Assembly: GCA_903927345.1 (NCBI GenBank)
Contig: CAIYMO010000055.1
Span: forward strand, 1-64,000
Direction: 5' to 3'
Source of the DNA: an uncultured Armatimonadota bacterium
GTDB taxonomy: Bacteria > Armatimonadota > Fimbriimonadia > Fimbriimonadales > Fimbriimonadaceae
DNA: 64,000 bases
Shown here: piece after piece, positions 1-8,286 of the stretch
How positions within the stretch are numbered: position 1 is the stretch's first letter
Layout of the letters: every line of letters starts with the position of its first letter
Made by a program: the position numbers and the translations under genes
Notes under the pieces: model-generated
The model's input: the letters and a program-made list of their open reading frames with translations, nothing else
What the model was told of the DNA's origin: nothing
Database searches by the model: none

Positions 1-241
1 CTGTTCGAGGTCCAAAGGAGGCACCCAGCCCCCACGATCTGCCACACGAGGTCACGCCTCAACTGACAAGCAGTGGTCTTAAAGACTGGGGTGCCAACAA
101 GAAGAGTTTAAGATACAACTGGTAAGCCCGGCGAGTAATCCTGTGGAAAATCTGAGAATCTGCTTACGAGCGGACCAACTTGGAATGGCGGGGCTTTGAA
201 GAGACTAAACGAACCAACAACTCCCCTGGCACAAGACGACG
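1..241. other. Non-coding, decayed Rhs-associated DNA
   Basis: I see no intact gene here. The stretch at about 150-240 partly resembles the stretch at about 4610-4690 (shared fragments such as ACAACTTGGAAT and AGACGACG), so it is probably the worn left flank of the first Rhs repeat unit. The full-length Rhs gene that these units came from is not in the window. Confidence 0.4.
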
Positions 242-538
242 ATGTCGTATGATAAGGAGAACCGGATGGCGACATTCGCTGAGGATGCGACGTTGAACAC
301 CTACACGTGCAACTCAGACGACTTCAAGAAAGGCGATAACGTAGATGGAAGTCTCTCCACCATCATCTGGGTTGGAACGGACTATCTGCAGGTTCGGGGT
401 CAGACGAGCGTCAAGACGTTCCACACCGTGGATTCTCTGATGCTCAGCTACATCGAAAGCACCTTGAGGTTCGATCTCCTGACCGACAACCTAGGCTCCC
501 TCATCGACCGACTAGTAATCATTCAGCGATGTGGATAA
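242..538 (+). pseudogene. Rhs YD-repeat remnant, copy A
   Basis: This open frame of 98 codons begins MSYDKENRMATFAEDATLNTY and carries the YD-repeat style words seen in Rhs/wall-associated proteins: SYDKENR, W.GTDYLQVRG, KTFHT and, at its end, LLTDNLGS. In a complete Rhs protein this lies just before the core cassette. Here the frame stops after LGSLIDRLVIIQRCG, and a separate core gene with its own start follows 67 bp later. Copies B (2911) and C (4816) are close relatives. I infer a decayed internal piece of an Rhs gene, displaced by cassette insertion; it could still be translated. Confidence 0.6.
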
Positions 539-577
539 ATCGACACATTATTCAGCTGAATTCTGGAATTACTGTCT

Positions 578-605
578 TACAATGATACTGAAGCGGTGAG
601 ATCTA
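578..605 (+). promoter_or_regulatory. Conserved leader of Rhs cassette 1
   Basis: A TACAAT hexamer (578-583) in the context CTTACAATGATAC is followed by GGTGAGATCTA directly before the ATG at 606; GGTGAG at 595-600 is a Shine-Dalgarno-like site with 5 bp spacing. The same two blocks stand before the second cassette at 3276, although the DNA between them differs. Their conservation says the core cassette is meant to be expressed as a separate gene. A good -35 box is not evident. Confidence 0.5.
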
Positions 606-1655
606 ATGGCAATGAAGAAGCGTTTCTATAGTGTGAATGGCCAGATGATGGGCTATGAGTCAGGAGGGGTCAAGAAAGACTTCCTGACAGACCACCTTGG
701 CTCCATCACTGCTGAGATCGACCAGAACCAGAACCGTACATTCGAGACCCGATATTCAGCTTATGGGCGTAACAACTGGTCTACAGGCACAGGCTGTGGC
801 TTTGGATGGGTAGGAAGCTACGGCTACCGAGAAACCGGTCTGTTCCACATGAGCCACTACGTCAGAGCGAGACACTACTCGTATGTGACGGGGAACTGGA
901 GCACGGTCGACGCATTCTGGAATTTGCAGAGCCCATACGGTTATGTGATGGGTCGAGCGGTCAAGCGAACTGATCGTACTGGCTGCGCCCCGGATGATCT
1001 TATTGAAAAGGCATGTGGATTCAAACTCTGTGACAAGTTAAACGAACTGCAACCAAAGGGAGATAAGTTCCAAGCTTTGCTAAACTGCATGGCGGGCCAA
1101 GGGTTTAATCAGCCTGGCGATGCTGAGCGAATTCGGAAGGGATTGGAATACATCAGATCTGCTTGCCCTGGCGGCTCTAGCAAGACTAAGCCTAGGTTCT
1201 GCCTCTATGGCGTTTCTGGAGGTAAATTGGTATCCCCAGGTGGAAGTCCCGTACCAGATAAGTGCAACATTGCAGCGGGTTGCGATCCTTCGATCGGCTT
1301 TGGAGGATTTGCGATTGGGCTAGTCTTGCCTGGGATCACGCCACCGAAGGGAGAGTCGTGTTTAGTTCCGAACGACTGTGTTAAGAAGAACTACGGTGGT
1401 CGCGGAGGTGCCCCATGCGATTGTGTGGTTGTGATCTGTGCTGACAACTTAGGAAGAGGCGCAGATCAGTTCTGCAAGAATGGGTTGATTCACGAGTTAA
1501 TGCACTGTGCCGGCTTTTTCGGAGCACCTGACCACAATGCCAATGGAAATGGTGGTAAACGCAACGACTTTGTTTACAACTTGGGATGCTGTGCCTGCAA
1601 AGTCCTATTCGGGGAGAATGATCCAGCATGTAGTGGGTGCGGAAAACGGAGATGA
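606..1655 (+). CDS. Orphan Rhs core with HELMH metallopeptidase-like tip (candidate toxin)
   Basis: The protein has 349 residues. Residues 1-126 are an Rhs core end: FLTDHLGS (26-33), RYSAYGR, then the H(Y)VRARHYSY.TGNWSTVD.....Y.Y..GRA...D.TG series that closes the Rhs shell. They match residues 1-126 of the product at 3276 almost exactly. Residues 127-349 are unrelated to that second tip: about 20 cysteines and HELMHCAGFFGAPDH at 296-310. HExxH is the zinc site of gluzincins and metzincins; the glycine seven residues after the first His fits metzincins, but the usual third ligand at +10 is Gly, with Asp-His following. No signal peptide is visible. By analogy with polymorphic toxins I infer a protease effector with a possible immunity gene downstream. 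Toxicity is not shown by sequence. Confidence 0.75.
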   Translation: MAMKKRFYSVNGQMMGYESGGVKKDFLTDHLGSITAEIDQNQNRTFETRYSAYGRNNWSTGTGCGFGWVGSYGYRETGLFHMSHYVRARHYSYVTGNWSTVDAFWNLQSPYGYVMGRAVKRTDRTGCAPDDLIEKACGFKLCDKLNELQPKGDKFQALLNCMAGQGFNQPGDAERIRKGLEYIRSACPGGSSKTKPRFCLYGVSGGKLVSPGGSPVPDKCNIAAGCDPSIGFGGFAIGLVLPGITPPKGESCLVPNDCVKKNYGGRGGAPCDCVVVICADNLGRGADQFCKNGLIHELMHCAGFFGAPDHNANGNGGKRNDFVYNLGCCACKVLFGENDPACSGCGKRR

Positions 1656-1662
1656 GAACCGG

Positions 1663-2508
1663 ATGATTGGTCTTTGCCAGGTGGCTAGCGGGCTCGAAGC
1701 GAGCTCAATACGTAGATTTGAGTTCAAAGGTAACGTTGTATTCCTAAACACAACTTGTACTTCAGGAGCATATTTACTCGAACAGAAATCAAGCAGCTCC
1801 GTGCTCGTTCGCATCGCCCCTGGTCTTGGGTTGTCCAAGATAGGAAGCTACGGGCGTGGCGCATTTTTTCAGGGAGTGATTGAGAACCACGAGCCTGTCA
1901 TTGGAAGTGTCGAGGCCAAGAATGGTTCAATTGACAAGTACCGGCAACTGCTCGCGAAAGAACCTCTATTCTTGGCTCCTCCATGGAAGTATGCCATCAC
2001 TCTCGAAAGCATCTGCGCTTCGATTGACACCTGGGCGAATTCAGACGATTTGTTCAGCTGGTCAGAGGTAAGCCGAGCAAGACTGGACGGATTTACGTTA
2101 GCGGCTGAATACGAGCCAACGAGAAACCGCGCGACATTCGTTGGTTACTATCCCAGCTCTAGTTCAATTCCCATACTCAGTAAGCTTCTTCTCTCTGATG
2201 GTAAGTTCCCCAAATTTGAGACCGTGCCGCTGCAAGGTTTGCCCATCGGCTTTGCGTGCAAGGGTATCGCCAGAATATCGCAAAGTTTCACTTTAATTGC
2301 AGGCACGATTGGCAGTGGACCGCAGTGGAGCGACCAAAAAGTTGTCGTTCTGGCTGTGAACGCGCAATCTGGCCATAGCAGAGTGATCTGGGAGAGCATG
2401 AGGTCGGACTTAACGGGAGGAGGCTTGATGAAGCTTTCCGATGAGATTTTCGTGGTTGCGACTAAGACGAACACAGTGGAGATAATTCGTGTTCGCTCCA
2501 GAAAATGA
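1663..2508 (+). CDS. Unknown protein after Rhs tip 1, candidate immunity protein
   Basis: The product has 281 residues from the ATG at 1663, which lies 7 bp after the toxin stop and behind GGAGATGAG. An in-frame ATG at 1618, overlapping the toxin gene, is an alternative. I do not recognise the family. The sequence is rich in beta-type segments (VVVLAVNAQSG, EIFVVATKTNTVEIIRV) and might be a beta-propeller or other all-beta fold. No clear signal peptide or membrane span. Its position directly behind a variable Rhs tip is where immunity genes normally lie; that is the only basis for the proposed role. Confidence 0.55.
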   Translation: MIGLCQVASGLEASSIRRFEFKGNVVFLNTTCTSGAYLLEQKSSSSVLVRIAPGLGLSKIGSYGRGAFFQGVIENHEPVIGSVEAKNGSIDKYRQLLAKEPLFLAPPWKYAITLESICASIDTWANSDDLFSWSEVSRARLDGFTLAAEYEPTRNRATFVGYYPSSSSIPILSKLLLSDGKFPKFETVPLQGLPIGFACKGIARISQSFTLIAGTIGSGPQWSDQKVVVLAVNAQSGHSRVIWESMRSDLTGGGLMKLSDEIFVVATKTNTVEIIRVRSRK

Positions 2509-2910
2509 AGCGATAGTGAAGCACAAGACTAACCCAATCCTCGAATCCAAACCCGGCTAGTCTTGTAGCCTTTACAATCCATGTTGGGGTTTCGTAGCCG
2601 TAATCTCAGCATCAGATTTTATGGTAATGACCACTTACCCTTAAACTCTCCAGGTTCGAGTTGCAAGAGACACTCTGGAAAGCGGTATTCCCAGGATCAG
2701 CGCTTGGGGCAATTGGATGGATACGGCGATGATGGTCTCACGAAGAACTACATCGACACCGCGGCGAGCCGCGAGCGTGGGCTGAGTAAGCAAAAGTGGA
2801 AGGGGTCGCACTGGTAACCGTGCTCAAAGCAAGTCATCACCTTCGACGGACCTGGTTACCAGTGAACGAGGTTGGCAGAGCATTATTAAAGCCCTCAAAC
2901 CCCAAATCTG
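2509..2910. other. Inter-cassette DNA, start of Rhs repeat unit B
   Basis: No convincing gene. A 78-codon open frame at 2581-2817 has no recognisable domain and I treat it as debris. From about 2760 the DNA matches the block starting at about 4690 and carries a perfect inverted repeat (2809-2819 and 2854-2864). Confidence 0.45.
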
Positions 2911-3110
2911 TCGTATGATAAAGAGAACCGGATGGCGACGTTCGCCGAGGATGCGACGTTGATCACGTACACCTACGATTCAGACGGCTTCAAGAAAGTC
3001 GAGAACGTAGGCGGAAGCCTCTCGACGATTATCTGGGATGAAACGTACTATCTGCTGGTTCGTGGAGAGAGCGCGATTAAGACGATCCACACCGAGAGTC
3101 TTAGGTGATG
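2761..3110 (+). repeat. Long direct repeat, unit B of Rhs array
   Basis: This block is repeated, with scattered substitutions and small indels, at about 4690-5060, and its second half also at about 240-450. Shared words include AAGTCATCACCTTCGAC, GGTTACCAGTGAAC, CTGTCGTATGATAA and GAGGATGCGACGTTGA. Tandem copies of this length offer homology for recombination that could gain, lose or swap the cassette lying between them. Confidence 0.65.
2809..2864. repeat. Perfect 11-bp inverted repeat (copy B)
   Basis: CACTGGTAACC at 2809-2819 is exactly complementary to GGTTACCAGTG at 2854-2864. The same arms with nearly the same 34-bp interior occur at 4734-4789. There is no T-run, so it is not an ordinary terminator. 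It might be a recombination site, a protein-binding site, or simply a relic of the ancestral coding sequence. Confidence 0.55.
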
Positions 3111-3190
3111 ATTTACATCGCACAAACCGTCTGGTTCGACCTGCTCCCCGATAACCTAGGCTCCATCATGGGCCGACCGGTAATCCTTTA
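2911..3190 (+). pseudogene. Rhs YD-repeat remnant, copy B (frameshifted)
   Basis: Reading from TCG at 2911 gives SYDKENRMATFAEDATLITY, then DSDGFKKVENVGGSLST, matching copies A and C, but the frame ends early at KTIHTESLR-stop near 3107. Beyond this the DNA still matches copy A in another frame up to the AACCTAGGCTCC block (NLGS). No start codon precedes it in a good context. It is therefore a broken piece of Rhs gene. Confidence 0.65.
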
Positions 3191-3242
3191 GAAGTGTGGA
3201 TAAATCATCACAAAATTCGACCGATTTCTGGGATTACTGGCT

Positions 3243-3275
3243 TACAATGATACGAACAAGCCTCGGTGAGATCTA
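3243..3275 (+). promoter_or_regulatory. Conserved leader of Rhs cassette 2
   Basis: TACAAT at 3243-3248 and GGTGAG at 3265-3270 repeat the arrangement found before the first cassette; the last 11 bp before the ATG (GGTGAGATCTA) are identical in both. The distance from the hexamer to ATG is 27 bp here and 22 bp in cassette 1. Confidence 0.5.
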
Positions 3276-4139
3276 ATGGCAATGAAGAAGCGTTTCTATA
3301 CTGTGAATGGTCAGATGATGGGCTATGAGGAAGGTGGTGTGAAGAAAGACTTCCTGACGGATCATCTGGGTTCCATCACCGCTGAGATTGACCAGACTCA
3401 GACGAGAACGTATGATACGCGCTACTCAGCCTATGGACGTAACAACTGGTCTACCGGCACAGGCTGTGGCTTTGGCTGGGTAGGAAGCTACGGCTACCGT
3501 GAAACCGGTCTGTTCCACATGAGCCACTACGTCAGAGCAAGGCACTATTCCTACATTACGGGCAACTGGAGTACGGTCGATCCGCTTTGGCCGGATGAAA
3601 ACGCGTACAGGTACGTGGGTGGACGAGCAACACGAGATCTAGATGCATCAGGAACATCATCTTGCAAAAGGAACTGGGACAGTTGTCCCAAGCCAGCTCT
3701 TGTTTCGAAGATTACGAATGATTGCATTCAAGAGGGTACACGTCCTTGCTACATCAGGGCGGTGCCAGGTTCAACCAAAGAAAACTGCGCGTGTTGTGGT
3801 GTCTGCTTTACTCGGTGTGATGCAATTGTTAAGTTAGGAGGTGTCCTTTGTGGTGGCTTCAATGCATCCGCGATGAAGGATTGCGCATCAAAGTCAATAA
3901 AGAAATTTCTGAACGGCCAAAACCAAATAAATCCGTCTGTGCCACCAAAAGTCGATCCCTCCAAGCATTGTCCGGCTTGCACACCCCCTGGTCGAGAGGG
4001 TAGCCATTACCAGTGGGACTGTAAGCCCAAATCCAAGGGAGTGATTACAGCCAATTGCTGCGCCTGTTACCGAAATGGAGAGGTCAGAATGGTCTGCTTT
4101 ACAGACGAAGGGTGTCATAACAATAAGGTAGCGAGATAG
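3276..4139 (+). CDS. Orphan Rhs core with cysteine-rich tip (candidate toxin)
   Basis: The product has 287 residues. Residues 1-126 are the same Rhs core module as at 606, ending STVDPLWPDENAYRYVGGRA and then DLDASG, the usual boundary before a variable tip. Residues 127-287 form a different tip with 19 cysteines in 161 residues, including ENCACCGVCFTRC and ANCCACYRNGE. I see no HExxH or other catalytic motif. A CCAC motif close to the C-terminus is shared with tip 1, so the two tips may be distant relatives or both rely on disulfides or metal binding outside the cytoplasm. The role as a toxin is inferred only from the Rhs architecture. Confidence 0.7.
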   Translation: MAMKKRFYTVNGQMMGYEEGGVKKDFLTDHLGSITAEIDQTQTRTYDTRYSAYGRNNWSTGTGCGFGWVGSYGYRETGLFHMSHYVRARHYSYITGNWSTVDPLWPDENAYRYVGGRATRDLDASGTSSCKRNWDSCPKPALVSKITNDCIQEGTRPCYIRAVPGSTKENCACCGVCFTRCDAIVKLGGVLCGGFNASAMKDCASKSIKKFLNGQNQINPSVPPKVDPSKHCPACTPPGREGSHYQWDCKPKSKGVITANCCACYRNGEVRMVCFTDEGCHNNKVAR

Positions 4140-4141
4140 CT

Positions 4142-4480
4142 TTGGATCCCTTATGCATAGGGATTATGGGTCATAGTGGAAGGGATGACTTGATTTCGGC
4201 ACTAAGTCAGTCTTTCGAATGCAAGTTAGTGCTCATCGAGTCTACAGACGATCTCGTATCTGAAGCGGAGAATCTGTCACTTATATTTTTATTAGATAAT
4301 GACAGACTCTTAAGTTTTCTGGATCTGGGTTTGACGATTCCGGTTGTCAGAATGGGTGATGAGTTGCAGGCCCTTCACCTTAGATGTTCGGTGAATGAGC
4401 ATCGGTTGTTGCAAGTACCTTTGAAATTAGAGCACTTCAAAACTTTTGTTAATCAGATACTCAAATCAAATTCTGCCTAG
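4142..4480 (+). CDS. Small unknown protein after Rhs tip 2, candidate immunity protein
   Basis: The 112-residue frame starts at TTG 2 bp after the toxin stop; an ATG at 4166, preceded by AGGGAT, gives 104 residues and may be the real start. The protein looks like a small soluble alpha/beta fold (LSLIFLLDNDRLLSFLDLG, IPVVRMGDEL). No family recognised. The DNA is visibly richer in A and T than the surrounding Rhs core, as is common for acquired tip/immunity DNA. The location is the main argument for an immunity role. Confidence 0.5.
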   Translation: MDPLCIGIMGHSGRDDLISALSQSFECKLVLIESTDDLVSEAENLSLIFLLDNDRLLSFLDLGLTIPVVRMGDELQALHLRCSVNEHRLLQVPLKLEHFKTFVNQILKSNSA

Positions 4481-4815
4481 ATCTCATATTTCAGACGCAT
4501 TAGATAGAACGAGTTGTAGTGGCGAGCCTCTTTCGTGACCAGGGTAAGCAGAAGAATTACGGGTGGCCGTGGACATTCCGTCAAGTGCTGCGACGAGAGT
4601 CTTGAAACCCGCCTACCAGCAGAACAACTTGGAATAGGGAGGACATTTTGAAAGCCAATTGAACCTCCAACTTACCAGAAGACGACGGCGAGCCACTTGC
4701 GTGGGGTGGGTAAGCAGAAGAAAGCTTGGGTGGCACTGGTAACCGTGCTCAACGCAAGTCATCACCTTCGACAGACCAGGTTACCAGTGAACAAACTTGA
4801 AGTTGGTAGAGCCTT
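4481..4815. other. Inter-cassette DNA, start of Rhs repeat unit C
   Basis: No gene seen. From about 4690 it repeats the block at about 2760; the stretch at 4610-4690 resembles the one at 150-240. Confidence 0.45.
4734..4789. repeat. Perfect 11-bp inverted repeat (copy C)
   Basis: CACTGGTAACC (4734-4744) pairs with GGTTACCAGTG (4779-4789). Both arms are unchanged relative to copy B, whereas the flanks and interior have several substitutions. Confidence 0.55.
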
Positions 4816-5142
4816 GTGACCAGCCCTCAAGTCGCAAATCTGTCGTATGATAAGGAGAACCGCATGGCGACATTCGCCGAGGATGCGACGTTGAACACCT
4901 ACACGTACGATTCAGACGGTTTCAAGAAGGTCGAGAACGTAGGCGGAAGTCTCTCTTCCATCATCTGGGATGGAACCGACTATCTGCAGGTTCGGGGCAC
5001 GAGCACAATCAAGACATTCCATACCGTGGAGTCTCAGGTGCTCAGCTACATCGAGAACACCTTCCGATTCGATCTAATTGAGGATAAGCTCTACTCCGTC
5101 CCATTTGTGCAAATGTTCAGCATCTCCAAAAGTAGTTTATGA
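4816..5142 (+). pseudogene. Rhs YD-repeat remnant, copy C (no core cassette)
   Basis: The frame of 108 codons (GTG start) contains LSYDKENRMATFAEDATLNT, DSDGFKKVENVGGSLSS, WDGTDYLQVRG and KTFHTVESQVLSY, and is the best preserved of the three copies. It departs from copies A and B at about 5070, exactly where they run on into LTDNLGS, and ends in an unrelated tail KLYSVPFVQMFSISKSSL. No core or tip follows. It marks either the end of the array or a site from which a cassette has been lost. Confidence 0.6.
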
Positions 5143-6439: not shown

Positions 6440-6652
6440 ATGCAGAAAGAGAGACAGATACTTTTAACCATCGAAGAGGCTGCGGCCTCCCTCGCCATTT
6501 GCCGTGCTCAGGTGTACCGCCTGTTGTACGCCGGTCAGATCCGAAGCATCAAGATCGGAAGATCAAACCGGATCCCACTCATCGAAGTCCAGAAGTTCGT
6601 GACCCGTGCCTCGCTAGATCAGCACGGTTACGACATCACGGAGGTGAAGTAG
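6440..6652 (+). CDS. Excisionase-family helix-turn-helix protein
   Basis: The 70-residue protein from the ATG at 6440 contains LTIEEAAASLAICRAQVYRL, then GQIRSIKIGRSNRIPLIEVQ, the standard helix-turn-helix-wing layout of the excisionase/MerR-like HTH_17 group (helix, recognition helix, then a short wing with an Arg). An upstream TTG at 6401 lies on the terminator and is unlikely to be the start. Its stop TAG overlaps the GTG start of the primase gene by one base, so the two are translationally coupled. It may act in excision or as a replication or transcription regulator of the element. Confidence 0.75.
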   Translation: MQKERQILLTIEEAAASLAICRAQVYRLLYAGQIRSIKIGRSNRIPLIEVQKFVTRASLDQHGYDITEVK

Positions 6653-8286
6653 TGAGCTTCACTCTCCAAGACGTATTGGCAAAGCTGCCAAGCGCCAAGA
6701 GGAATGGGACTGGCTACCAAGCCTGCTGCCCAGCCCACGACGACAAGAACCCATCTCTGTCTATAACTGAGACAAGTGGCAAAGTGCTCCTCAAATGCCA
6801 CGCTGGTTGCAAGTACGAAGCCATTGTGAAAGCCCTTGGGCTTTGGGAAACTTCTCCACCGAAGCCTTCGAAAATCGAGAAGAAGGAGGTGGCTTCGTAC
6901 GGCTACCACGATGCTTCAGGTCGGTTAGTGTACGAAGTGGTGCGCTACGAGCCAAAGGACTTCCGCCAGCGAAGAGTTGAAGCGGATGGTCGCCGGATCT
7001 GGGATATGAAAGACGTTCAACGAGTCCTGTACCGTCTTCCAGCGGTGCTTGAGGCTGTCAAGAAGGGAGAAATCATCTACATCACCGAAGGTGAAAAGGA
7101 TGCGGACAACTTGGGCAGATTAGGAGTAGTTGCCACAACTAATTCCGGTGGAGCCTCAAAATGGCAAGACTCGTACACCGCTGACCTTTCCGGGTCGCAT
7201 GTCGTGGTCATAGTAGATCGGGACGATGCTGGAACCAAACATGCCCTTAAGCTCAAAGTGGAGCTAGAGCCGGTTTGCAAGTCAATCCACTTCGTGCGAG
7301 CGAAAGAAGGCAAAGACGCCTCAGATCATATGACTGCTGGATTCGGACTGGACGAGTTCATCCCATTTGGATTCCCCAGAACCGGCAACGGGCTGTTGAC
7401 ACTTCAGCAACTGTACGAACTTCCCCCGGAGGAGGTGAGTTGGACTGTTGAGGGTCTGCTTCCCGCTGGGAGTCTTAGCATCCTCATCGCCAAGCCCAAG
7501 GTTGGTAAGAGCTCGCTCATTCGCGAACTTGTCAGGGATGTTGCACTCGGTCAGACATTCCTTGGAAGGCAAGTAGACCCTGGTCCTGTCATCTACCTAG
7601 CGTTTGAGGAACGGATTCACAGCGTTAGAGAAGCGTTTGAGGCAATGGCAGTGTCGCCAGATGCTCCCATTCTGCTCACAGTTAACAAGTCAGATTGTCC
7701 CGATGTTGAGACACTCGTCAAGCTCATTGAGAAGCACAAGCCCTCTCTAGTGATCATTGACACATTGATCCGCTTCTGCAAGGTCCAGGACCTCAATGAC
7801 TATGTCGGAGTCACAAGGGCGATGGAGCCACTTGCTGAACTAGCCAGATCTTCAGGCTGCTCAATCCTTGTAAGCCATCACGGGAAGAAGGGCGAAACGG
7901 AAAACAACGGTGATAGCGCATTAGGTTCTACCGCGTTGTTTGGCATGGTAGACACCCTGATCCGTATTAGGGTGGATGGTAGTAACCGGCGCATCATCTC
8001 AACTGAGCAGCGGTACGGCGACTCTTTAGAGTCGTCCATGCTGAGTATGGACCGTGCTACAAAGCGAATCCATATCGAAGGTTCGCTGCATCAGGATAGG
8101 ATGAAGTCAATAAGGGCAGACATCCTCGATCTGTTCAATGGGGCTCCAATCTCGCTGCCCGTGATCCGTGGTGTGATCAAGGACAATAAGGTCCCGCAAC
8201 TCCTCAATGAGATGGTTGCCGAGGGAATCCTTAAGCGAACTGGTAGTGGCAAGAAGAACAGTCCATTTGAGTTCGAGCTCATCTAA
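6652..8286 (+). CDS. Primase-helicase (CHC2-like zinc finger, TOPRIM, RepA-like ATPase)
   Basis: The 544-residue protein starts at GTG 6652, placed 7 bp after GGAGG. A zinc-finger region (C25, C26, H29, C49, H50, C53) is followed by a TOPRIM domain with EGEKDADN (147-154) and VDRDDAG (188-194), then a RecA-fold ATPase with Walker A KPKVGKSS (281-288) and Walker B LVIIDT (to D370). A short winged-helix-like end closes it. Proteins with this order prime and unwind DNA during replication of plasmids and integrative elements. It probably supports replication of the excised element. A longer reading frame back to 6499 overlaps the HTH gene and is rejected. Confidence 0.85.
   Translation: MSFTLQDVLAKLPSAKRNGTGYQACCPAHDDKNPSLSITETSGKVLLKCHAGCKYEAIVKALGLWETSPPKPSKIEKKEVASYGYHDASGRLVYEVVRYEPKDFRQRRVEADGRRIWDMKDVQRVLYRLPAVLEAVKKGEIIYITEGEKDADNLGRLGVVATTNSGGASKWQDSYTADLSGSHVVVIVDRDDAGTKHALKLKVELEPVCKSIHFVRAKEGKDASDHMTAGFGLDEFIPFGFPRTGNGLLTLQQLYELPPEEVSWTVEGLLPAGSLSILIAKPKVGKSSLIRELVRDVALGQTFLGRQVDPGPVIYLAFEERIHSVREAFEAMAVSPDAPILLTVNKSDCPDVETLVKLIEKHKPSLVIIDTLIRFCKVQDLNDYVGVTRAMEPLAELARSSGCSILVSHHGKKGETENNGDSALGSTALFGMVDTLIRIRVDGSNRRIISTEQRYGDSLESSMLSMDRATKRIHIEGSLHQDRMKSIRADILDLFNGAPISLPVIRGVIKDNKVPQLLNEMVAEGILKRTGSGKKNSPFEFELI

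What the first reader, a model, noticed from the sequence alone, without database searches (positions are those of the whole stretch)
242..5142. Array of orphan Rhs core cassettes with swapped tips, separated by decayed YD-repeat copies
Two genes (606, 3276) share an almost identical 126-residue Rhs core but carry unrelated Cys-rich tips, each followed by a unique small gene. Each unit is preceded by a decayed copy of the same YD-repeat segment, and a third copy (4816) stands without a cassette. Unusually, the core modules start with their own ATG and a conserved leader (TACAAT, GGTGAGATCTA), so they look like stand-alone genes rather than silent 3' fragments. This may be a modular toxin reservoir in Armatimonadota, either expressed as free tips or recombined onto a full Rhs gene outside the window. 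Seen: repeats, core identity, leaders. Known: Rhs orphan tips with immunity genes in Enterobacteria. Inference: function.
Basis: partly seen in the sequence, partly recalled or inferred. Interest (0 to 1): 0.75.

Follow-up and report, generated by a model that had tools for sequence, protein, structure and literature searches.

The report
Split Rhs toxin with swappable caps
In a group of little-studied bacteria, a large shell-shaped toxin that is usually one protein is encoded as two genes, a shell and a separate cap that carries the toxic tip, with spare cap-and-tip genes kept nearby; if the reading holds, one shell could be loaded with different tips by swapping a subunit.

Summary
The window's two core+tip genes are real, and they are not ordinary orphan Rhs fragments. 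The same genome holds a shell gene on another contig: a 1,239-aa YD-repeat ORF ending GGTGAGATCTAATG, its stop overlapping the ATG of a core gene. In relatives, 60 shell-tail/core junctions in 23 genomes are split into two ORFs. The stop lies 17-24 nt before the core in 54 of 60, ATG starts 57 of 60, and all three frame offsets occur, so this is a conserved gene split rather than a frameshift. Further stretches gave 21 of 24. Seventeen junctions in the first set are fused; on the core tree they need four changes and mostly nest in split clades. Stand-alone copies usually keep the start codon. Core dN/dS between the two window copies is 0.12. Tips are diverse and Cys-rich, often with HExxH. Best reading: a two-gene Rhs, with the shell as one subunit and the autoprotease-like cap plus tip as a separate, exchangeable one. 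Assembly in trans, toxicity, immunity and export are not shown. A new variant of Rhs polymorphic toxins.

The parts
1..199 (.). Repeat shared with the end of contig C48 (97.5% over 199 nt); the array probably continues beyond the window
205..502 (+). Relic 1 of a fused-type Rhs (YD tail and first part of its core); open ORF 242-538
   Evidence: 78 of 98 residues identical to a G018 fused fragment
578..583 (+). TACAAT, possible -10 element of cassette 1; no clear -35 seen
   Evidence: TACAAT upstream of 8 of 51 uncoupled copies, 0.70 expected
595..606 (+). GGTGAGATCTAA: SD-like sequence and stop codon left from a split-type shell gene
   Evidence: same bases at the C35 shell/core junction
606..983 (+). 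Core (cap) 1, split type, start ATG 606
984..1655 (+). Tip 1, Cys-rich, HELMHCAGFFGAPDH motif (metallopeptidase-like, motif recalled)
   Evidence: no Pfam or NCBIfam match
1618..2508 (+). Gene after tip 1 (296 aa from ATG 1618), candidate immunity gene; no homologue in 85 genomes of the family except itself
2811..2862 (.). Inverted repeat CTGGTAACC...GGTTACCAG between cassettes
2909..3168 (+). Relic 2 of the fused-type Rhs, interrupted by a stop
3243..3248 (+). TACAAT, possible -10 element of cassette 2
3265..3276 (+). GGTGAGATCTAA: SD-like sequence and stop codon left from a split-type shell gene
3276..3653 (+). Core (cap) 2, split type
3654..4139 (+). Tip 2, Cys-rich, no known family
4142..4480 (+). 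Gene after tip 2 (112 aa from TTG), candidate immunity gene
   Evidence: no family match
4736..4787 (.). Second copy of the inverted repeat
4841..5100 (+). Relic 3 of the fused-type Rhs, without a cassette

Best explanation
The genes at 606 and 3276 are stored copies of the second gene of a two-gene Rhs. In this lineage the Rhs coding sequence is cut at a fixed point just before the core. Gene 1 encodes the YD-repeat shell. Gene 2 encodes the cap, with the conserved acidic residues of the Rhs autoprotease region, plus the tip. In coupled loci gene 2 starts at or a few nucleotides after the shell's stop codon, with an SD-like sequence inside the last shell codons (shown as sequence), so its translation is probably coupled to the shell (inferred). 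The cap+tip protein would close the shell without a covalent link and free the tip by cleavage (inferred from solved Rhs and Tc cocoons). Further cap+tip genes lie in arrays and share their core with other copies of the same genome. They could be swapped by recombination in the core or, being complete genes, be made from their own start and loaded in trans (inferred). The window is one such array, laid among truncated relics of a different, fused-type Rhs.
For: Own genome: 1,239-aa shell ORF on C35 ending in TAATG with the core start; same junction at the C28 end, TAAGATG on C48. Relatives: 60 split junctions in 23 genomes, stop at -17 to -24 in 54, ATG in 57, start 2 nt after the first stop base in 21 and 3-8 nt after it in 33, SD-like motif in 54 of 60 against 33% of shuffled windows, frame offsets 35/20/5; 21 shells of at least 850 aa in 14 genomes with offsets 10/8/3, 19 of them in range. 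Further stretches: 21 of 24 in range. Uncoupled copies: ATG 49, GTG 2, none 14 of 65; SD-like in 35 of 51 against 21%. dN/dS 0.10-0.14 for the window cores against each other and G018. Both acidic positions D102 and D123 invariant in the 38 aligned cores. Fused rows need 4 changes on the tree, shuffled mean 10.7, 0 of 500 as low; uncoupled cores mostly sit beside cores of their own genome. The core profile matches the C-terminal region of teneurin-like proteins, TcdB2-TccC3 and Rhs 8qja. Short stop/start overlaps couple translation and often join subunits of one complex (PMC10666635, title and start of abstract in the listing).
Against: No expression, binding or toxicity data. Fused forms exist in G002, G013, G014, G016, G018 and G024 and G129, so the split is not universal. 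39 of 60 first-set split junctions have a truncated shell tail (under 850 aa). In families f13 and f26 the cores stand alone but no shell tail was found beside them. The coupled tip of this genome is not assembled. TACAAT copies come from four genomes and lie 11-72 nt from the start. dN/dS may reflect time spent in coupled genes; one pair (G018a/b) gives 0.34. The export route is unknown.
Confidence: 0.72

Rival explanations
1. Ordinary orphan rhs-CT reservoir: the uncoupled copies are silent displaced cassettes that matter only after recombination onto the shell gene; only coupled copies are made.
For: Uncoupled cores cluster with cores of the same genome, as core-mediated exchange predicts; window cassettes lie among truncated relics; the 76-nt core start on C35 looks by eye like a mosaic of the two window copies. 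Enterobacterial precedent (PMC3967940, passages).
Against: Enterobacterial orphans usually lack translation initiation signals (PMC3967940), whereas 51 of 65 uncoupled copies here have a start codon in place and 35 of 51 an SD-like motif; TACAAT is enriched upstream.
Confidence: 0.3
2. Shell and core are joined by programmed frameshifting or stop readthrough into one normal Rhs chain.
For: Most junctions have the two frames overlapping or abutting, and fused relatives exist.
Against: Offsets 35/20/5 and 12/11/1, all three stop codons (28/18/14), a double stop in L061, and ATG plus SD-like motif kept in place.
Confidence: 0.05
3. Pseudogenes: old frameshifts or stops in decaying Rhs genes, or assembly error.
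For: Truncated and interrupted copies are common in these loci; many genomes are draft assemblies.
Against: 21 long shells are open up to the junction in 14 genomes, with stop, SD-like motif and ATG in place despite different frames; dN/dS of the compared window cores is 0.10-0.14; the split recurs on three contigs of this genome.
Confidence: 0.03
4. The cap+tip genes now act alone, for example as secreted Cys-rich enzymes, and no longer work with a shell.
For: Tips are Cys-rich (median 7.9%) and 21 of 107 carry HExxH; several arrays have no shell on the fetched stretch.
Against: The core keeps both acidic positions and its Rhs sequence in 38 of 38 aligned rows; window proteins start MAMKKRFY, with no signal peptide visible by eye; coupled loci persist.
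Confidence: 0.08

Closest known systems
Rhs/YD-repeat polymorphic toxins (single-chain cocoon with autoprotease cap and variable tip, e.g. RhsA, PMC8765631)
   Same: YD-repeat shell (PF05593), Rhs_assc_core (TIGR03696), conserved acidic residues, variable C-terminal tip
   Different: Shell and core+tip are separate ORFs with a stop/start junction at a fixed place
Orphan rhs-CT/rhsI pairs of Enterobacteriaceae (PMC3967940, passages)
   Same: Extra core+tip units with a following gene, sharing the core with other copies
   Different: Enterobacterial orphans usually lack translation initiation signals; here 51 of 65 have a start codon in place, 35 of 51 with an SD-like motif
TcB/TcC cocoon of Tc toxins (PMC8765631 and PMC7861908, passages)
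   Same: Cocoon made of two chains, the second with autoprotease region and variable toxic region; several TcC genes can occur in one locus
   Different: TcC proteins are 851-1,050 aa in 97.2% of cases (PMC7861908) and carry much of the shell (553 residues precede the matched stretch in TccC2 6l7i_G); here most cap+tip frames are about 200-450 aa. The C35 shell matched only RHS_repeat in Pfam
Translationally coupled gene pairs (PMC10666635, PMC6728339, listing)
   Same: Very short overlaps such as TAATG or TGATG, often between subunits of one complex
   Different: Here the pair divides a protein that is continuous in fused relatives

Membership tests
Rhs/YD-repeat polymorphic toxins | YD/RHS-repeat shell | tested here: met
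   C35 shell: PF05593, E 4.8e-119, 22 stretches
Rhs/YD-repeat polymorphic toxins | Rhs-associated core with conserved acidic residues | tested here: met
   TIGR03696 on both window genes, near or over cut-off; D102 and D123 invariant in 38 of 38; that they are the catalytic pair is inferred
Rhs/YD-repeat polymorphic toxins | Variable C-terminal tip | tested here: met
   39 of 5,356 tip pairs similar at E 1e-4; mean column identity 5%
Rhs/YD-repeat polymorphic toxins | Shell, core and tip in one polypeptide | tested here: not met
   60 split against 17 fused in the first set
Rhs/YD-repeat polymorphic toxins | Immunity gene after the tip | tested here: inconclusive
   ORF of 60 aa or more after 104 of 107 tips, but also at 82% of random same-strand places; start within -20 to +40 nt in 66% against 28%; 5 of 6 similar downstream pairs follow similar tips, all five within one genome
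Rhs/YD-repeat polymorphic toxins | Toxic activity of tips | not testable with these tools
   Needs expression
Enterobacterial orphan rhs-CT | Fragment without translation start | tested here: not met
   51 of 65 uncoupled copies have ATG or GTG in place
TcB/TcC | TcB-type domains in the shell subunit | tested here: not met
   Only RHS_repeat in the C35 shell at E 0.01; that TcB carries SpvB/TcdB_mid domains is from PMC7861908 passages
TcB/TcC | TcA partner | tested here: inconclusive
   No PF18276 in the own genome, but the search rang in none of 14 controls
T6SS Rhs effectors | VgrG-type spike in the genome | tested here: not met
   No PF04717 match in the own genome; controls rang in 2 of 14
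Programmed frameshift gene | One fixed frame offset | tested here: not met
   Offsets 35/20/5 and 12/11/1

The most novel reading that the evidence does not exclude
A two-subunit Rhs weapon in which one shell protein is loaded, in trans and without recombination, with any of several cap-toxin subunits made from stand-alone genes, so that the arsenal changes by expression rather than by rearrangement; the degenerate NifU-like protein encoded just upstream of most shells is its assembly or loading partner.
Probability: 0.4. Interest if true: 0.87.

Novelty: new variant of a known kind. Interest (0 to 1): 0.72.

Why it matters
Rhs proteins are described as single chains that seal their own toxin in a cocoon, and enterobacterial orphan tips as fragments that usually lack a translation start. 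A lineage-wide gene split between cocoon and cap would mean that the cap can be a separate subunit. It would explain why stored tips are complete genes here, and give a natural system to test cocoon loading, cap exchange and toxin release. It also exposes a store of Cys-rich tips mostly without known families: at least 97 of 105 scanned tips have no Pfam match at E 0.01.

Tried and rejected
NCBIfam on 105 tips gave two weak, implausible hits. The TcA search is uninformative because its controls were silent. The genome-contig scan found one locus. The gene after tip 1 found only itself in 85 genomes, so immunity pairing could not be tested that way; tip 1 has weak matches in 3 other genomes of 85. 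My count of ORFs after tips (104 of 107) proved weak once a control was run: 82% of random same-strand places also have one. Rejected: frameshifting, decay, assembly error (see rivals).

Literature: the listings (open-licence PMC, 78 and 79 listings capped at 10-20 of 56-109 papers) showed no paper on a split Rhs of this kind or on Rhs in Armatimonadota as a subject. Passages only were read of PMC3482391, PMC8765631, PMC13018210, PMC7861908 and PMC3967940. Print elsewhere is not excluded.

Rows dropped or doubled: of 142 core hits, one place in G005 is counted twice (overlapping stretches L057 and L127, without a tail) and four frames in L120 belong to interrupted copies; 107 hits were complete enough for the tip analysis, 105 tips of at least 60 aa went into alignment A2, and 105 cores into the tree. 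The second set of stretches was picked by me from the listed matches, mostly places with stand-alone frames, so its split-to-fused ratio is biased; the stop position is not chosen.
Full report
OBSERVATION. The window is the start of contig C55 of a 3.1 Mb genome in 57 contigs. Two ORFs (606-1655, 3276-4139) share a 126-residue core at 83% identity and differ after it. The core is the Rhs-associated core. Three YD segments lie around them. The description is sound, with two corrections: the cores are similar rather than almost identical, and the YD segments come from another Rhs type. Segment 1 is 78 of 98 residues identical to a fused-type fragment of relative G018, and all three segments stop aligning at the same residue.

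THE MISSING HALF. Searches of the same genome found cores on C48 and at the very end of C35, and YD tails on C35, C48 and C28. C35 carries a 1,239-aa YD ORF (L010 76-3795, minus strand; PF05593) ending IWDGTDYLGEI-stop. The DNA there reads GGTGAGATCTAATGGCAATGAAGAAG: the stop TAA overlaps the ATG of a core ORF. The C28 end has the same junction, C48 has TAAGATG. C35 and C28 break off inside the core, so the tip that follows the shell is not assembled.

CONSERVATION. The core was found in 30 of 61 genomes, own included. I fetched 80 stretches around those matches and, with three own-genome stretches and the first 8 kb of the window, scored 142 core hits with models built from them: 60 split, 17 fused, 65 without a recognised shell tail (uncoupled copies, contig edges, partial copies; one place counted twice). 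In the split set, from 23 genomes, the shell stop lies 17-24 nt before the core in 54 of 60; ATG starts 57 of 60; the start is 2 nt after the first stop base in 21 (TAATG or TGATG) and 3-8 nt after it in 33; an SD-like motif precedes it in 54 of 60 against 33% of shuffled windows; stops are 28 TAA, 18 TGA, 14 TAG; frame offsets are 35, 20 and 5. Twenty-one shells of 850 aa or more, in 14 genomes, have offsets 10/8/3 and a stop in range in 19; two of them run off a contig edge. The other 39 split junctions have a shorter tail ORF. On 20 further stretches, mostly places with stand-alone frames picked from the phylum survey, models from the first set gave 24 split, 3 fused, 34 without tail; the stop was in range in 21 of 24, starts were 19 ATG and 5 GTG. 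For the f13 and f26 stretches no shell tail was found beside the cores.

WHAT THIS EXCLUDES. Mixed offsets, three stop codons and a double stop (L061) argue against frameshifting or readthrough. Long open shells argue against decay. On a 105-row core tree (52 split, 42 uncoupled, 11 fused) fused rows need four changes, shuffled mean 10.7, 0 of 500 as low, and mostly nest in split clades, so fusion looks derived here; the tree has only 126 columns and 24 open forks.

STAND-ALONE CASSETTES. Of 65 copies without a tail, 49 start with ATG and 2 with GTG at the expected place and 14 have no start in range; an SD-like motif precedes 35 of 51 against 21% shuffled. TACAAT lies within 75 nt upstream in 8 of 51, from four genomes and including both window copies, against 0.70 expected (0 of 2,000 simulations reach 8), and in 0 of 60 coupled copies. 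Its distance to the start varies (11-72 nt) and no clear -35 box was seen, so own promoters are suggested only. Core dN/dS is 0.12 between the window copies and 0.10-0.14 against two G018 copies; those two give 0.34 between themselves. Part of that selection may date from time in coupled genes.

TIPS AND NEIGHBOURS. All 107 tips contain Cys (median 7.9%; shells 0.37%) and 21 of 107 have HExxH (0.37 in shuffles), tip 1 included; a C-x2-HD motif like that of phospholipase A2 (recalled) occurs in 6 of 107, 0.39 in shuffles. At most 8 of 105 tips match Pfam at E 0.01. An ORF of 60 aa or more follows 104 of 107 tips, but 82% of random same-strand places have one too; its start lies within -20 to +40 nt in 66% against 28%. 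Of 6 similar downstream pairs 5 follow similar tips, all five within one genome, and 34 of 39 similar tip pairs have no detectably similar downstream gene. Immunity is plausible, not shown.

THE COUPLED LOCUS. A small NifU-like gene lies just upstream of 16 of 19 split shells with upstream sequence, of 5 of 6 fused ones, and of the C35 shell (Pfam PF01592 tested on the C35 protein only). A glycosyltransferase-2/TPR gene lies further upstream of 12 of those 19, of none of the 6 fused (some with little upstream sequence), and of the C35 shell (Pfam tested on six relatives). C35 and G018 also have a weakly PT-HINT-like protein next to the shell (E 1.5e-4, under Pfam's cut-off). No PF04717 match is in the genome.

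MECHANISM. Shown: the split at a fixed place, start signals, a constant cap with two invariant acidic positions, variable tips. From papers: in Rhs and Tc cocoons the conserved C-terminal region seals one end and cleaves off the toxin (PMC8765631, passages); stop/start overlaps couple translation and often join subunits of one complex (PMC10666635, listing). Inferred: shell and cap+tip assemble without a covalent bond, and stored cap+tip genes replace the coupled one by recombination or by expression in trans. I file it as a variant of Rhs polymorphic toxins that does not meet the one-polypeptide feature.

Noticed in passing
Upstream of the shell in L010, L051, L059, L061, L062, L065, L066, L068, L072, L080, L097, L113, L116 and others: A conserved small NifU-like gene (16 of 19 split shells, 5 of 6 fused) and often a glycosyltransferase-2/TPR gene precede the shell. 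Aligned rows keep one Cys (GCPS/GCPA) and lack the usual first Cys of the scaffold family (recalled).
   Followed up: partly
window 2811-2862 and 4736-4787; L053 4971-5022: An inverted repeat CTGGTAACC-N34-GGTTACCAG lies between cassettes in this genome and in relative G018; none expected by chance in the window. As DNA it folds with z -2.0; 8 of 200 shuffles fold as well.
   Followed up: partly
L009 9442-9735 (C48) and L053 (G018 C2): Cores truncated at the same place (YRETG then EPL) in two species, next to sequence similar to the window spacers.
   Followed up: no
window 1-199 and the end of C48: The contig starts with a repeat 97.5% identical to the C48 end; C28 and C35 also end in the core, so the assembly breaks in this repeat family.
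   Followed up: partly
L009 9896-10774 (C48): A 292-aa gene without Pfam match sits just before a YD relic, as if left from a lost cassette.
   Followed up: no
L010 3792-4361 (C35): A weakly PT-HINT-like protein overlaps the start of the shell gene; a similar one precedes the G018 shell.
   Followed up: partly
tips in L054, L065, L085, L119 and others: Six of 107 tips have a C-x2-HD motif like that of phospholipase A2 (motif recalled); one of 105 matches Phospholip_A2_4 weakly.
   Followed up: no
window 6499-8286: Right of the array lies an ORF whose translation looks, by eye only, like a plasmid- or phage-type primase/ATPase; a mobile element may adjoin the array.
   Followed up: no
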